Shown here piece by piece: positions 1-28,368 of a stretch of DNA of 41,610 nt. The notes beneath the pieces were generated by a model. The model was not told the origin of the DNA and searched no databases. It was given only the letters and a program-made list of their open reading frames with translations. A program made the position numbers and the translations under genes. The stretch is from the NCBI GenBank assembly GCA_003135635.1, contig PLCJ01000001.1, positions 174,155 to 215,764 of the forward strand. The letters run 5' to 3'. The number at the start of each line of letters is the position of its first letter. Position 1 is the stretch's first letter. Origin of the DNA: Candidatus Adlerbacteria bacterium. GTDB lineage: Bacteria > Patescibacteriota > Minisyncoccia > Phycocordibacterales > SBAW01.

Positions 1-893
<893 letters not shown>

Positions 894-11243: not shown

Positions 11244-12527
11244 TTATTCGAGGCTTATTTTCTTGTCCTTCAGGAATAATTTGCTCTGTAAGCATCCGAG
11301 TAATTCACGCTTCTCTATAAGCGTCCCTTCTCTCAGTAAGTACTTGGTGTAATTTCTCACATCCACATCAATCTCAATATTGTCTTGTTTGTGTCCGAGC
11401 ACTCCCGACCTGAATTTGTTGAAGCGTTTTATCTCGTCCTCTATTCTCGTTCGTATTCCTAGTTCGTCCATATTGACCGTATCCATGAGCCCTATCAGCT
11501 CCTCTATAAGACTCGGCTCATTTATGGCCGGATTCTTGCAGTCTATATTCCTTGCCTTAGTGCAAAAGTAGTACACGTGCCTGTTTACGCCGCCATCCTT
11601 TAACTTCTTAAACTTCTCGTCAGCAGATATACCGGAGCCACAGTGCCCACATCGTATGAGCTTGGTAAAGGCAAACTCCTTACTCTCAGTTTTTGGTATA
11701 AAGTTCGCGTTCAGCGTCATCTGCACCTTTGTATACAGCTCCTTATCAATAATAGGCGTGTGCTTGCCCGTGTACCACTGGCCACCGCCGACAGGATACT
11801 CAAAGTCTCCATAGTAAAAAGGATTCCTTAATATTATGTAGACATTAGCGAGTACGAGCGGTTTACCGCGATGCGTCTTAAAGTCTATCTCTCGGAGCCA
11901 GCGATACAGCTTGCGCCCACTCCATTGTTCATTGGCGACCTTTTCAAACATCTGTTTGATGACCGGCCCGCGCTTTGGGTCAATCCTACATTGGCACTTT
12001 TTATCAACGTGCTTTTCGTTTAAGTATCCGGTCGGTGCAACACCAGGCCTCCACCCCATCTCGCATCGTGTGCGCAAGCCGCGCTTAACATTCACTGCTT
12101 TGTTGTCATTCTCGAGCTTTGCTTGGCTCCCCAGTATCATCAGCAAAAACTTTTCATTGGGGTTGTTGGTAAACTTTTGCCCGTAGGTGCGTATCTCATG
12201 TAGGAGCTTTTGATCCATGAGGTCTACGACCGACCCCAAGTCTCCGGCGTTGCGGCTCAGCCGGTCCGGTGCCCACGTGAGTATCGCGTTGAACTTTTGT
12301 GAGCGCAGATCCTCGAGCATCTGGTTGTATACAGGCCGCTGGCCTACCTCCTTAGAGGAGTGCGACTCCCGTTTTATCTCTACTATATGGAGCCCGTCAC
12401 GCTCGGCGAGCACCTGCATCTCCTTCACCTGTGACTCTATCGAAAGAGCCTGTTTATCCTCTGCCTCGGTACTCTTGCGTGCGTAGAGGCAGTACCTTAA
12501 AGCCTCCTGCGGCTGTGTTTTTTCCAT
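11244..12527 (-). CDS. Large serine recombinase / site-specific integrase
   Basis: N-term RYCLYARKSTEAEDKQALSIESQ, ILTWAPDRLSRNAGDLG, recombinase domain GRKLYRWLREI, zinc-ribbon LIRCGHCGSGISADEK...YYFCTKARNIDCKNPAI. Confidence 0.95.
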   Translation of the reverse strand: MEKTQPQEALRYCLYARKSTEAEDKQALSIESQVKEMQVLAERDGLHIVEIKRESHSSKEVGQRPVYNQMLEDLRSQKFNAILTWAPDRLSRNAGDLGSVVDLMDQKLLHEIRTYGQKFTNNPNEKFLLMILGSQAKLENDNKAVNVKRGLRTRCEMGWRPGVAPTGYLNEKHVDKKCQCRIDPKRGPVIKQMFEKVANEQWSGRKLYRWLREIDFKTHRGKPLVLANVYIILRNPFYYGDFEYPVGGGQWYTGKHTPIIDKELYTKVQMTLNANFIPKTESKEFAFTKLIRCGHCGSGISADEKFKKLKDGGVNRHVYYFCTKARNIDCKNPAINEPSLIEELIGLMDTVNMDELGIRTRIEDEIKRFNKFRSGVLGHKQDNIEIDVDVRNYTKYLLREGTLIEKRELLGCLQSKLFLKDKKISLE

Positions 12528-12551
12528 ATACCCCAATGAATGACGCAACGG

Positions 12552-12561: not shown

Positions 12562-12631
12562 TCTAGGACCCTCGGAGTTGGTAACTTAGCCCTTCAAAAA
12601 GTCATAAAAAGTGTTACAGTTGAGCCAAATC

Positions 12632-20646: not shown

Positions 20647-21006
20647 AATGCGAGTGGCGATAGGTAGGATTTGACGCATCCGTTCATTAAGGAAAAGGCT
20701 TCGACATACACCCCAGTAGTCCTCTAAGTCCAGTGTTGGTAACCCGCTTCGCAAGCCCCCTAATCTAAGCTAGGGTGTCAGACGGTAGCCTAGGTGCTAT
20801 CATGTCCTTGTACAACTTAATAAAAAGGGCCTAACCCGGAGACTCTCTCCGGCAAGGTCGACAAATCCCTTCGCAGACACTGAACCCCGCGTTCAGCAGC
20901 TCTGCGAAGGGTCATACTTGGAAACGGGTATGGGGACGCAAGTCTCGGCTGGCGCGGGGTTCAGTGTTTGATCTCCACGCCGGGCTTATCAACTAGCCCC
21001 GGCAGT
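20647..21006 (+). ncRNA. Candidate structured RNA / long regulatory leader with pseudoknot potential
   Basis: Several perfect helices: CCGGAGA/TCTCCGG (20836-20852), GGTAGC/GCTATC (20784-20801), 11-bp CCCTTCGCAGA(20867-20877)/TCTGCGAAGGG(20901-20911), 14-nt CACTGAACCCCGCG(20878-20891) complementary to CGCGGGGTTCAGTG(20953-20966), GNRA hairpin GGGAC-GCAA-GTCTC (20933-20946). Boundaries uncertain. Confidence 0.65.
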
Positions 21007-21507
21007 ATGAAAAAAATAATCGGTTTTAAATCAGGAGGAACAATCTTTTCAGGAATAGCAGGAGAATATTTTGTTGCGGCCGAGCTTTCCAGAAGAGGAT
21101 GCATCGCTAGTGTAACCCTTAGAAACACAGAGGGGATCGATATCCTTGCGAGCAATGGAGAGAAAACTGTAAATATACAAGTTAAGACAAGACGCACTGA
21201 TAAAACAAACGGCTGGAATTTCGGAGGCAAAAAATTAGAATCCAAAAAAGAATGGAACAATGTTTTTTATGCGCTTGTAGAGATTTCTTCCAATCCGATG
21301 GAAAAAACAGTGAGTTACTACATAATTCCAAAAAACGAACTCAACGAGAGAGTGGAGGATAATTTTCAAAGATGGCTACACGGAAGCAAGAAAAACGGTG
21401 AACCGAGAAAAAGCAAAATGAGGATGTGCATCCCATCGGAACTTAAAGAATTTTTGGATTTTCGAGTTGAAAGATACAAAGATAGATGGGATAGACTTTT
21501 TAATTAA
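21007..21507 (+). CDS. PD-(D/E)XK nuclease-like protein
   Basis: GIAGEYFVAAELSRRGCIASVTLRNTEGIDILASNGEKTVNIQVKTRR fits E...D-x(n)-QVK PD-(D/E)XK layout; ATG at 21007 preferred over TTG at 20968. Confidence 0.7.
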   Translation: MKKIIGFKSGGTIFSGIAGEYFVAAELSRRGCIASVTLRNTEGIDILASNGEKTVNIQVKTRRTDKTNGWNFGGKKLESKKEWNNVFYALVEISSNPMEKTVSYYIIPKNELNERVEDNFQRWLHGSKKNGEPRKSKMRMCIPSELKEFLDFRVERYKDRWDRLFN

Positions 21508-23969: not shown

Positions 23970-25361
23970 TTAATTCTCTTTTCCAATCGAGTTGATTCGG
24001 GCTAGTAGCTTACCCAACTGTTCAGAGACTGTCTCTTCAACCTCGCGTGGCTTAGGCTGCTCTAGACCGGATTCAATATCCTTGCCGCCGTTTTCATACC
24101 ACTCTTTGAAACGGCCGGGATTGACATGAGTTTCCAGGTATTTAACCATGGCCCGCGCCCTTAAATCACGCTCCTTTTGTCTGGCCTCCGACAACTCGAT
24201 ACGTTGCTGTAATGATTTTTTCACTGAGGCCTCCGACGCGAATTTTCTGATTGAAGCTATCTGAACGCTCATCAGTGGAGTGTCCAAATTTACATTTCCG
24301 AAGTATCGAAGGTATAAAGGATCATCTTTGTGCGCGTCGTGAGGCGTCGGCATTTTCCGCGAGAACGGGACAGAGATGCGGAACTCCTTCATCTGCGGTA
24401 TGAGCGGGAGTTGGTAGGAGAGCGGCGATGCTATGAACCCTTTCCAACCCTCCGATTCTGCAACAATAAGTTCATATATGCTTACCGCGCTGTCCTTCTG
24501 TGAGCCAAGCATCTTCAGCAGAAACTCCCGAGTCCAAACTTCATGTGGAACCAGCTTTGTGAGGGCTTCGACGCTCTCAATGTCCGGATACCTCCCGGGC
24601 CATAGGATACGCTGTTCGTCATCGATGATGGGGTAGGCGCGGAAGATTCCATCTGACTCGCCATTTTTGATTCGTGCCTTCAGCCGCATGAGCAACGAGT
24701 CCTCGCAGACAAGATTTCCAAGAAGCACAACTCGGGTATCGTCGACATTTCCGAGAGGCAATATCTCGCTGGTAAAGCGCCGGTATATCTTTTCCCGCTT
24801 CGCCTCTTCATGCGCCGAGTCGCTGCTTTCAATGTCGTCGCAGACGATGAGGTCAGGACGCAGGGCACCGTGCTTCATACCGCGTGCGCCCTGCTCGATC
24901 GAGATAGAGGCTATTTTTGAGCCGTGATATACAAGCTCGAGCGACGCATTGTTCCACTCGCTTCCGCGCTCAGTGAAGGGCCCGAAGTCCTCCCGCAGTA
25001 GGTCGTTGTGCTCGAGCTCTTCCTTGATGTTCGTGAAGTGGTCCACGGCCTGCCCCAGCGTTTGGCTCACCACCACGGCGAATTTCTTCTGCGGCTTTCC
25101 AAGGATCGACCACAACACGTTCGCCGTGTTGAGGATCGCTGACTTGCCGGATCCGCGAAATGCCATGACTACGATTAAGTCGTGTTTGGTCTGCTGGATG
25201 AGATGGAACATCTCCATGTGGAACGGCGCGAACGGATCCTTGAAGTGGTGCCGCAGATAAATGAGGCCAAACCACAGCGGGTCTTCGTAAGCTAAGCGCT
25301 TTCTGACGCTCTGGTTGCCGAGTATTTCACGCAACTTTTTTGGACTTATGTTTTTTGGCAT
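23970..25361 (-). CDS. Phage terminase large subunit-like ATPase
   Basis: Walker A VMAFRGSGKSAIL, Walker B-like LIVCDDIESSDS, coupling motif-like VVLLGN; N-term FHMEMFHLIQQ. Confidence 0.85.
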   Translation of the reverse strand: MPKNISPKKLREILGNQSVRKRLAYEDPLWFGLIYLRHHFKDPFAPFHMEMFHLIQQTKHDLIVVMAFRGSGKSAILNTANVLWSILGKPQKKFAVVVSQTLGQAVDHFTNIKEELEHNDLLREDFGPFTERGSEWNNASLELVYHGSKIASISIEQGARGMKHGALRPDLIVCDDIESSDSAHEEAKREKIYRRFTSEILPLGNVDDTRVVLLGNLVCEDSLLMRLKARIKNGESDGIFRAYPIIDDEQRILWPGRYPDIESVEALTKLVPHEVWTREFLLKMLGSQKDSAVSIYELIVAESEGWKGFIASPLSYQLPLIPQMKEFRISVPFSRKMPTPHDAHKDDPLYLRYFGNVNLDTPLMSVQIASIRKFASEASVKKSLQQRIELSEARQKERDLRARAMVKYLETHVNPGRFKEWYENGGKDIESGLEQPKPREVEETVSEQLGKLLARINSIGKEN

Positions 25362-25776
25362 AGGTATTCTTTCCGCCGGACGAGAGCGCGAGGGCGTGTT
25401 TAATTAGCCGCTCTTCTTTCGCGGTCGGCTCCGATATTTGTGCGGGCTGCGTGCGCGACGCCGCGCGAGCGCCGTAGCGAGCGGAGTTGTTCCTAAGGTA
25501 GAAGATAATAGCCGGCAGTTTCTTTTCTTTGACGAGCTGAATGGCTTGCGTTTCGCTCATATCGCAGATGAAGTCGACGCCCTGCTTGAACGCTTCGCCG
25601 CTTGCCTGCGCGAACGCACTATCTTCCCGGCACCATCGGTAGTACGTGGTGCGGCCGATGCCGCTCCTTTTGCAGGCGACTTCGATGACGGGCGTTTCTC
25701 GGAGCGTATCGAGAAATTTCGCCTTTGAGTCGGCTTGGCGCTTTTCGATGGTTTCGTCGTATGTCTCGTTAGCCAT
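25327..25776 (-). CDS. HTH protein, terminase small-subunit-like
   Basis: MANETYDETIEKRQADSKAKFLDTLRETPVIEVACKRSGIGRTTYYRWCREDSAFAQA; start at 25776; overlaps the TerL-like ORF. Confidence 0.75.
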   Translation of the reverse strand: MANETYDETIEKRQADSKAKFLDTLRETPVIEVACKRSGIGRTTYYRWCREDSAFAQASGEAFKQGVDFICDMSETQAIQLVKEKKLPAIIFYLRNNSARYGARAASRTQPAQISEPTAKEERLIKHALALSSGGKNTYAKKHKSKKVA

Positions 25777-27115
25777 GGATTTTACTGGGGGTGAGGCCGG
25801 TAAGTTTTTCGAGGCGCTTAAGAATGACTGCGGTATAGGTCGGCGACTTCTCCATGAGGAAAAAGCGTCGGCCGAGCTTCCACGCGGCCACGGCGGTGCT
25901 GCCGCTGCCACCGAAGGGCTCAAGCACGACGTCGCCGCGCTTGGTGAGTACCTTTATATACGGCACGAGCAGCTCGATGGGCTTGGTCCCGAAGATGATG
26001 CCTTGGCCGCTACTTTTCTCATCCGCCGCGACGTGGGTTATGAAGTCCGTAGGGCATATCTTTTTACCTTTTTCATAGGACTCGAACTGGGGCTTTCCGC
26101 TCGTCGCAAAGATGGCGTTCTCATACTCATTCTGGAAGAGCCCATCCTCCGGCTCGAGATTAAGAGGCACATCACCGCCCGTGCCGACGAGCGCGATGTC
26201 CTGCTTATTGAAGAACTTATATTTCGCGGCGAAGCCCTGCACGCGATTCGGAACGTGCCACGTGATGGTATTGCGGTATCGCCAGTGTTTCTCCATGGCG
26301 TTCCAGATGGTGCGAAGATTCTTTGGGTGCTCGAAGATGAGGATGGAGAAGTCCGGCTTCTGCACCTTCGCGACGGCTGCCATCCATAGGTCGGAGAAGT
26401 CGTCCGGCAATGTTTCGGTACCGAGATAGACGCGGTTTTTCTTGGCTCCGAAGCCGCGCGTGACGCCGTCCTTCTGTTTCGTCTTGCCTTTGAGGTAATC
26501 GAGAATATACGGAGGGTCAGTGCAGACCATGTCCGCCTTCGCGCCGTCCATGAGCGCGAGCATGTCGGCTTCGACCATGCTGTCGCCGCATTGCACGAAC
26601 GAGTCGCCGAAGGCGAATTTGTCGCCGGGCTTGATGTCTATATCCCCGATGCCGAGTTTCGTCAGCTCTTTTTTGAGGTCGAACTGCTCGGGCGTCTCCT
26701 CGACGGCGAAGATAGTATCTAGGTCCTCGCTGGTGAACCCGACACCCGACAGGAACATCTCGTCGAATTCGGCAAGAAGTTTGAAATCCCATTCGCCCAC
26801 ATTTTTATTGAGACGAAGGTTCAGCTCGCGCTCTTTCTCTTCGTCAGGAATGTCGACGTATACCGCCGGGGCTTCGGTATGACCGAGCAGTCTCATGGCG
26901 GCCAGCCGCATATGGCCGCCGATGAGAATGTTTTTGCGATTGGGCGCGGCATTGAGGATGATCGGGTCGACGGTGCCGAAGAGCTTGATACTATCCGCAA
27001 GCGTGTCGAGAGCCTCTTTGGACCACTTACGCGGGTTGTAAATCGCGGGCTCTATACTGCCGACGGGGACATAGACGATTTTTAAGCTTTGTGTGGGCGT
27101 GTGTATCTTATCCAT
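25769..27115 (-). CDS. ParB-like N-terminal domain fused to DNA methyltransferase
   Basis: N-term IYNPRKWSKEALDTLADSIKLFGTVDPIILN...GGHMRLAAMRLLG (ParB/Srx-like); CTDPPYILDY (DPPY) and EPFGGSGSTAVAAWKLGRRFFLME (SAM site). Confidence 0.93.
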   Translation of the reverse strand: MDKIHTPTQSLKIVYVPVGSIEPAIYNPRKWSKEALDTLADSIKLFGTVDPIILNAAPNRKNILIGGHMRLAAMRLLGHTEAPAVYVDIPDEEKERELNLRLNKNVGEWDFKLLAEFDEMFLSGVGFTSEDLDTIFAVEETPEQFDLKKELTKLGIGDIDIKPGDKFAFGDSFVQCGDSMVEADMLALMDGAKADMVCTDPPYILDYLKGKTKQKDGVTRGFGAKKNRVYLGTETLPDDFSDLWMAAVAKVQKPDFSILIFEHPKNLRTIWNAMEKHWRYRNTITWHVPNRVQGFAAKYKFFNKQDIALVGTGGDVPLNLEPEDGLFQNEYENAIFATSGKPQFESYEKGKKICPTDFITHVAADEKSSGQGIIFGTKPIELLVPYIKVLTKRGDVVLEPFGGSGSTAVAAWKLGRRFFLMEKSPTYTAVILKRLEKLTGLTPSKIHG

Positions 27116-27116
27116 A

Positions 27117-27617
27117 TTATTTTTTCTTATCGCTTTTAATCTCCATACCAGCGAGCCGCAGGAACATCTCTACGTCTTTTGCACTACATTTTTCCCCTTG
27201 CGTCTTGAGGTATAAGCCGCCTATAACATCGGGCACACGCTCAGTCATCCATTGCTTCATGACTTGGTAGACAAGGGTGGCGAACTGAGGGTGTTTTTTC
27301 CAATCAGTCAGCGTGTCCTGGCACACTCCGATTGTCTGGGCAAATTCCTTCTGTGTTTCTGGTTCGCGAAATTGGTGAGGTGTGGCGCACCATATGACGA
27401 ATTTGATAAACTCGGCGTGGCGATTGACGCCGACAACAACCGGCAAGAAATCGGAGTGGATCGGAGTTACCCCTGCCTGAGAGTCAGCTTCATTTTTAAT
27501 TTTTTCCGGCATAATTTGCTCGGGTGCACCGCTACCTAATAAAATAAAAACCTGATGGTGCTTCCCATCGTTATTAACAGTATCCTCGATCACCTCGCGC
27601 GTATAAGAATTAGCCAC
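27117..27617 (-). CDS. HTH protein (phBC6A51-like / terminase small-subunit-like)
   Basis: FREPETQKEFAQTIGVCQDTLTDWKKHPQFATLV. Confidence 0.7.
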   Translation of the reverse strand: MANSYTREVIEDTVNNDGKHHQVFILLGSGAPEQIMPEKIKNEADSQAGVTPIHSDFLPVVVGVNRHAEFIKFVIWCATPHQFREPETQKEFAQTIGVCQDTLTDWKKHPQFATLVYQVMKQWMTERVPDVIGGLYLKTQGEKCSAKDVEMFLRLAGMEIKSDKKK

Positions 27618-27624
27618 CCTACAC

Positions 27625-28368
27625 TTATTTCCTCCGGCTTTTTTCTAGCGATATTATCTTTGCGATTTCCGAGTATTCAAAATACCTCTCTTTGGTAGCA
27701 AATTTGTCATTGACGAGTCCCATAAGTTTTTTCCTCGGGAGATCTCGGTTCTGATAGATAAATTCATTCAACTGTCGGGAAGACTCTTTTCGTGTCCTCA
27801 ACTTAGTAATCTTTGAGCGCGGCCTTCGATATTTTTTCTGAAGGCGGAGAATGTGTGGACCATAGACTCTATTTACATACTCCACAATATCCTCTTTGCT
27901 TGCATCGGGACTGATACGCAGGGCGATTGGATACAGATAGTCATCGTCATTTTGCGTAGCTTGTACAAATGGGTGTTTTTTCTCTTCGACTATATCGCTG
28001 ACGACCAACAGTTCGTAGGTATCTGGCCGACTCGGGGTCTCTGCTCTGTTATAAAGAATAAATGTTGTAATTGCCTCCGACCCTTCGAGATGGTGCAGAA
28101 GGTAGTGTCGACATATTCTCTGGATTTTCTTTTCTAGCTTTTGCCGAATTTGGCGATTGTCCTTGTAGCGCCACTCCTTAGGTGGATATGGGTACTCTGC
28201 GCCTGCCGTAAACCCTTGTTCTGGTATATCTAATTCCGTTCTCGTCTTTGCGACGAATGCGCGAAAATCATCCTTATCAAAAATATACAATATCAGATTT
28301 TTGATTTTCTTATGCCCGCCCGCCGCCGGACGATCTTTCTTTTTTCCCACTATCTTTTGATGATACAC
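27625..28368 (-). CDS. Hypothetical protein
   Basis: 247-aa basic ORF, same operon orientation as the packaging-like genes. Confidence 0.65.
   Translation of the reverse strand: MYHQKIVGKKKDRPAAGGHKKIKNLILYIFDKDDFRAFVAKTRTELDIPEQGFTAGAEYPYPPKEWRYKDNRQIRQKLEKKIQRICRHYLLHHLEGSEAITTFILYNRAETPSRPDTYELLVVSDIVEEKKHPFVQATQNDDDYLYPIALRISPDASKEDIVEYVNRVYGPHILRLQKKYRRPRSKITKLRTRKESSRQLNEFIYQNRDLPRKKLMGLVNDKFATKERYFEYSEIAKIISLEKSRRK

What the first reader, a model, noticed from the sequence alone, without database searches (positions are those of the whole stretch)
20647..21006. ~350-nt unidentified structured RNA with competing long helices (pseudoknot or switch)
Seen: 11-bp hairpin CCCTTCGCAGA/TCTGCGAAGGG whose interior CACTGAACCCCGCG is perfectly complementary over 14 nt to CGCGGGGTTCAGTG at 20953-20966, giving an H-type pseudoknot. 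The same 5' segment can instead pair locally (CTGAAC/GTTCAG), and the 3' segment can pair locally in GGCGCGGGG-loop-CTCCACGCC. That is classic mutually exclusive pairing. There are also GGGAC-GCAA-GTCTC (GNRA loop), CCGGAGA/TCTCCGG, GGTAGC/GCTATC, ACACCC/GGGTGT, and a final GGGCT/AGCCC hairpin abutting the ATG at 21007. I do not recognise it as tmRNA, RNase P, SRP or a group I intron.
Basis: seen in the sequence. Interest (0 to 1): 0.78.

Follow-up and report, generated by a model that had tools for sequence, protein, structure and literature searches.

The report
LOOT leader RNA beside serine recombinase

Summary
The pseudoknotted RNA is real, but it is not unidentified and not ~350 nt. It is Rfam LOOT RNA (RF03000, 20828-20946, 81.1 bits; no function assigned in anything I could read). 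The transcript probably starts at ~20812; the 5' half of the reported region is promoter and a recombination-site-like block.

The H-type pseudoknot runs past the Rfam model, and 69 relatives support it: 98% of cells paired, compensatory changes at all 7 pairs.

New context:
(1) In 136 of 143 copies LOOT lies just upstream of a start codon of very diverse genes, so it is most likely an mRNA leader rather than a free sRNA.
(2) LOOT sits beside large serine recombinases (LSRs), almost always divergent from them. A reverse search starting from LSRs confirmed this. Repeats of GTTGGTAAC flank the cargo, an integron-like layout in Patescibacteria.
(3) In 36 of 134 leaders (1 expected), and in 19 of 24 new leaders from the LSR search, a copy of the P3 5' arm sits at the start codon. 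The P3 3' arm can therefore pair with its own 5' arm or with the start site.

Best reading: a cis-acting leader switch controlling cargo translation. Structure and context are shown; the switch is inferred, and weak in the window itself.

The parts
20828..20946 (+). LOOT RNA, Rfam RF03000 (P1-P5)
   Evidence: 81.1 bits, cut-off 46.4, full model 1-121
20812..20822 (+). ACAACTTAATA: conserved start box of LOOT transcripts, probable transcription start
   Evidence: 108 of 143 copies at 8/11 or better, 14% expected
20798..20803 (+). TATCAT, probable -10 element
   Evidence: TATAAT-like hexamer most often 12-14 nt before the box in relatives
20867..20877 (+). P3 5' arm (strand D)
   Evidence: P3 covaries
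20901..20911 (+). P3 3' arm (strand E), pairs with D
   Evidence: P3 covaries
20878..20891 (+). Pseudoknot 5' strand (A), inside the P3 loop
   Evidence: 98.1% of cells paired in 69 relatives; permutation z 30
20953..20966 (+). Pseudoknot 3' strand (B), beyond the end of the Rfam model
   Evidence: 14/14 complementary to A
20973..20981 (+). Leader segment C (CTCCACGCC), alternative partner of B
   Evidence: B:C better than 95% of shuffled leaders in 40% of copies, not in the window itself
20997..21005 (+). CCCCGGCAG: degenerate candidate for the start-codon copy D'
   Evidence: weak: -9.1 kcal/mol with E, matched by 7% of foreign E strands
21007..21507 (+). Gene led by LOOT, 166 aa; weak PD-(D/E)XK resemblance, below the Pfam cut-off
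20732..20782 (+). Recombination-site-like block, core GTTGGTAAC 20735-20743
   Evidence: profile E 4.6e-13; same block precedes about 30 LOOT copies or follows LOOT-led genes
12577..12585 (+). Second GTTGGTAAC core, next to the recombinase start
   Evidence: only two exact cores in the window; same position in 29 of 80 recombinase loci, 0.4 expected
11244..12548 (-). Large serine recombinase, divergent from LOOT
   Evidence: PF00239, PF07508, PF13408
12611..20630 (+). Inferred inserted cargo: type I restriction-modification genes, IrrE-like and DUF4411 genes, between the two cores
   Evidence: insertion itself not shown

Best explanation
The feature is a LOOT RNA that forms the 5' leader of a cargo gene in a mobile element run by a large serine recombinase. 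Transcription starts at about 20812. The leader folds into P1-P5, and the loop of P3 pairs with a strand after P5 to make a pseudoknot. Two of these pairings have rivals further down the leader: the pseudoknot 3' strand B can pair with leader segment C, and in many relatives the P3 3' arm E can pair with a copy (D') of the P3 5' arm placed right at the start codon. State 1 (P3 plus pseudoknot) leaves the start codon free; state 2 (E:D' plus B:C) covers it. LOOT thus most likely works as a cis-acting translational switch for genes carried by recombinase cassettes. Shown: family, pseudoknot, leader position, recombinase association, D' copy in relatives. Inferred: that both states form in cells, that they set translation, and what tips the balance. 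In the window the D' element is degenerate, so there the switch may rest on B:C alone or be decayed.
For: Rfam match. Pseudoknot covariation. Start box and -10. ORF start 7-113 nt after strand B in 136 of 143 copies. D' of 8 nt or more at the start codon in 36 of 134, 1.05 expected, -5 to +6 nt from the ATG; 19 of 24 new loci; at the three G.U pairs of P3, D' carries the Watson-Crick partner of E. Recombinase within 12 kb of 45 of 59 copies, 39 upstream and divergent, genome co-occurrence p 1.3e-5; reverse search. Shared cores and blocks.
Against: No transcript, probing or expression data. 98 of 134 copies, the window included, lack a clear D'. State 1 looks much more stable and forms first during transcription, so a trigger is needed and none is known. 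The genes share no function. Rfam files LOOT as an sRNA gene.
Confidence: 0.55

Rival explanations
1. LOOT is a trans-acting small RNA, released by termination or processing, whose P3 3' arm pairs with start regions of target mRNAs, possibly including the recombinase.
For: Rfam type 'Gene; sRNA'. The code CCCGCTAGAG also lies in the first codons of the recombinase in three genomes. A second gene in G201 also has the code before its ATG.
Against: Three other codes have no shared site elsewhere in their genomes. Own recombinase starts are not generally complementary to E. An ATG follows within about 110 nt almost always.
Confidence: 0.17
2. LOOT is a transcription attenuator: the pseudoknot helix followed by a U-rich stretch ends transcription unless a rival pairing forms.
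For: Many copies read GGGCTTTTTGTG right after the GC-rich pseudoknot strand; B:C could act as an antiterminator.
Against: The window type has no U-run (CGCGGGGTTCAGTGTTTG), and in many copies the U-run is itself inside the paired strand. D' at the start codon would have no role.
Confidence: 0.13
3. LOOT is an RNA partner of the recombinase, for instance a guide or a factor that sets the direction of recombination.
For: Tight, oriented association with the recombinase; the P3 sequence recurs between distant genomes while the rest diverges.
Against: P3 arms do not match the shared core GTTGGTAAC. Large serine recombinases are known to act as proteins without RNA (general knowledge). D' sits at start codons, not at cassette ends. 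About half of recombinase-bearing genomes lack LOOT.
Confidence: 0.08

Closest known systems
LOOT RNA, Rfam RF03000 (Rfam 14, PMC7779021; Rfam 15, PMC11701678; discovery paper Weinberg et al. 2017 not readable here)
   Same: Whole model matched above the cut-off; same P1-P5 arrangement and conserved loops
   Different: The Rfam model stops before the pseudoknot strand B; Rfam calls it an sRNA gene, here it is a leader; recombinase context, sites and start-codon copy not described in anything I could read
Translation-controlling leader RNAs (riboswitch-like switches; general knowledge)
   Same: Competing helices in a 5' UTR, one of which can cover the start codon
   Different: The led genes share no function; the switching strand is a copy-specific code; no ligand known
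Integrons and SCC-type serine-recombinase cassettes (general knowledge)
   Same: Recombinase gene divergent from cargo, direct-repeat sites between cargo units, restriction-modification cargo
   Different: Serine rather than tyrosine recombinase (against integrons); different site sequence; a structured leader RNA; recombination not shown
IS110 bridge RNA (general knowledge)
   Same: Structured RNA beside a recombinase
   Different: Different recombinase family; no pairing of the RNA arms with the shared site found

Membership tests
LOOT RNA (RF03000) | covariance-model score above the gathering cut-off over the whole model | tested here: met
   81.1 bits against 46.4, positions 1-121
LOOT RNA (RF03000) | stand-alone small RNA gene (Rfam type) | tested here: inconclusive
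   genomic position favours a leader; no transcript data
tmRNA | match to RF00023 | tested here: not met
   no match here; the genome's tmRNA is at C3:39374-39753
Riboswitch or leader switch | location in a 5' UTR on the same strand as the gene | tested here: met
   ATG ORF 7-113 nt downstream in 136 of 143 copies
Riboswitch or leader switch | mutually exclusive helices, one touching the start region, conserved in relatives | tested here: met
   met for about 27% of copies and 19 of 24 new recombinase loci; weak in the window
Riboswitch or leader switch | ligand binding or change of expression | not testable with these tools
   needs experiment
Integron | IntI tyrosine recombinase | tested here: not met
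   the recombinase is a large serine recombinase
Integron | tandem cargo units separated by direct-repeat sites next to a divergent recombinase | tested here: met
   works-like only

The most novel reading that the evidence does not exclude
LOOT is the regulatory RNA of a serine-recombinase cassette system: each copy carries a private 10-12 nt code (P3) that addresses the start codons of its own cargo genes, and in some elements the recombinase too, coupling cassette expression to mobility.
Probability: 0.15. Interest if true: 0.88.

Novelty: new variant of a known kind. Interest (0 to 1): 0.63.

Why it matters
LOOT RNA has been in Rfam without an assigned function. Placing it as a leader of recombinase-borne cargo, with a conserved pseudoknot beyond the model and a three-strand start-codon switch in many copies, gives it a concrete and testable role. 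It also points to an integron-like cassette system based on serine recombinases in Patescibacteria, whose gene traffic is poorly understood.

Tried and rejected
tmRNA and other Rfam RNAs. P3 arms as pieces of tRNA or rRNA: no excess. P3 codes as sites elsewhere in the genome: none shared for three codes. E-strand repression of the recombinase mRNA as a rule: only one code type clearly fits. Shine-Dalgarno loss as a reason for the leader: 13.7% against 15.6% in control genes, no difference. D' in early coding sequence: 1 of 135 copies. One shared cargo function: 133 proteins fall in 86 clusters. A dyad over the -10 as a general operator: 21% of copies against 7% shuffled, weak in the window. 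Literature on LOOT with recombinases or Patescibacteria: nothing found in the held library. The 2017 discovery paper is not held, so what it says of LOOT's neighbours is unchecked.

Full report
WHAT IS THERE. The genome (0.6 Mb) holds one copy. The reported region mixes three things: 20732-20782 is a conserved DNA block; 20798-20822 is a promoter -10 with the family's start box; from about 20812 to the ATG at 21007 runs the RNA leader. So the RNA part is about 195 nt, not 350.

THE FAMILY. LOOT occurs patchily: 32 of 99 near relatives, with up to 7 copies per genome, and 104 of 384 genomes of the class. I assembled 143 copies. Upstream, 108 carry ACAACTGAATA (8/11 or better; 14% expected) with a TATAAT-like hexamer most often 12-14 nt before it, as expected if transcription starts at the box.

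THE PSEUDOKNOT. The loop of P3 (strand A) pairs with a strand (B) that begins after the Rfam model ends. Own A:B pairing averages 15.15 against 9.40 when B is permuted among copies (z 30; maximum of 2000 permutations 10.1). On a 69-copy alignment 98.1% of cells pair and all 7 pairs show changes on both sides; the whole structure scores 0.568 against 0.217 shuffled and at most 0.203 when slid. B also has a rival: B:C pairing is in the top 5% of shuffled leaders in 40% of copies, and two near-identical loci keep it through compensating changes.

A LEADER, NOT OBVIOUSLY AN sRNA. In 136 of 143 copies an ATG ORF of at least 40 aa starts 7-113 nt after B. The 133 longer proteins fall in 86 clusters, 66 of them singletons: DNA methyltransferases, superinfection-immunity proteins, zinc ribbons, secreted and membrane proteins.

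A START-CODON COPY. In 36 of 134 copies at least 8 nt of the P3 5' arm D are repeated so that the copy D' ends -5 to +6 nt from the ATG; permutation gives 1.05 on average and 6 at most. Other parts of the locus show no comparable excess. D, E (the P3 3' arm) and D' vary together between copies. At the three places where P3 has a G.U pair, D' carries the base that pairs with E by Watson-Crick rules; three further differences give G.U with E; the other 24 do not pair and are almost all at the ends of the copy. That fits E:D' pairing as RNA better than a mere DNA repeat, though the numbers are small. All 8 DNA methyltransferase genes belong to this class. The loci found through the recombinase (below) overlap little with the first set: of 24 new ones with an ORF, 19 have D'. 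In the window the best candidate (CCCCGGCAG) is weak.

THE RECOMBINASE. The window has a large serine recombinase at 11244-12548 on the other strand. Of 59 LOOT copies in near relatives, 45 have a PF07508 recombinase within 12 kb: 39 upstream and divergent, none upstream on the same strand, 6 downstream; most of the 14 without one lie on short contigs or near contig ends. Genomes: 30 with both, 2 with LOOT only, 34 with recombinase only, 33 with neither (Fisher p 1.3e-5; relatedness of genomes not corrected for). Reverse test: 80 loci of relatives of the window's recombinase, nearly all from named Patescibacteria, searched with a model built here. LOOT is found in 33, in 29 of them upstream and divergent, 12 of these only 143-238 nt away.

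THE SITES. A 45-bp block, TGTTGGTAAC-n5-CTTCGCAA-n11-TAAGCTAnGGTG, lies just upstream of about 30 LOOT copies or right after the LOOT-led gene, always in the same direction. The core GTTGGYAAC occurs within 700 nt of the recombinase start in 29 of 80 recombinase loci, mostly 25-154 nt away (0.4 expected; 2 on the other strand). The window has two exact cores, 12577 and 20735, flanking a type I restriction-modification gene set with an IrrE-like and a DUF4411 gene. Two loci (L297, L361) have two cores only 11 bp apart, as an empty site would look. I infer an integron-like order: recombinase, site, inserted cargo, site, LOOT-led cargo. Recombination itself is not shown.

THE CODE. P3 sequences recur between genomes: 62 pairs share at least 9 nt against 0-4 in a position-wise null, often with unrelated genes and background similarity elsewhere in LOOT; fetched copies within a genome did not share one (0 of 89 pairs), but G181 has a second, unfetched copy with the same code. 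Two near-identical orthologous loci differ mainly in P3. Transfer of modules plus avoidance of cross-talk would explain this, but for copies without D' the recurrence remains unexplained.

MECHANISM AND LIMITS. Two compatible sets of pairs exist: {D:E, A:B} with a free start codon and {E:D', B:C} with a covered one. I take LOOT to be a cis translational switch for cargo; the trigger is unknown. Rivals are a trans sRNA, an attenuator, or a recombinase partner. What the 2017 discovery paper says of LOOT's neighbours could not be checked. PMC7657543 notes 28 cross-covariations in LOOT, which competing pairings could produce.

Noticed in passing
395-578 (+): Group I intron match (51.3 bits, cut-off 50) inside the 23S rRNA gene.
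   Followed up: no
23970-28368 (-): Terminase-like, ParB/DNA-methylase and HTH genes next to the ribosomal protein operon: phage-like genes in the same island.
   Followed up: partly
L043, L075: Near-identical orthologous LOOT loci whose P3 stem differs as a whole while the rest is conserved; P3 seems to switch between recurring codes.
   Followed up: partly
L245, L246, L247: The P3 code CCCGCTAGAG occurs in the first codons of the recombinase of three genomes that carry a LOOT with that code.
   Followed up: partly
LOOT copies with DNA methyltransferase genes: All 8 LOOT-led DNA methyltransferase genes have the start-codon copy D'.
   Followed up: no
promoters of relatives, -10 region: Inverted repeats such as GATAGC..GCTATC overlap the -10 in 21% of LOOT promoters (7% in shuffles): possible repressor site.
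   Followed up: partly
L043, L075, L151 after the LOOT-led gene: The site block is followed by a further gene without LOOT: possible tandem cassettes.
   Followed up: partly
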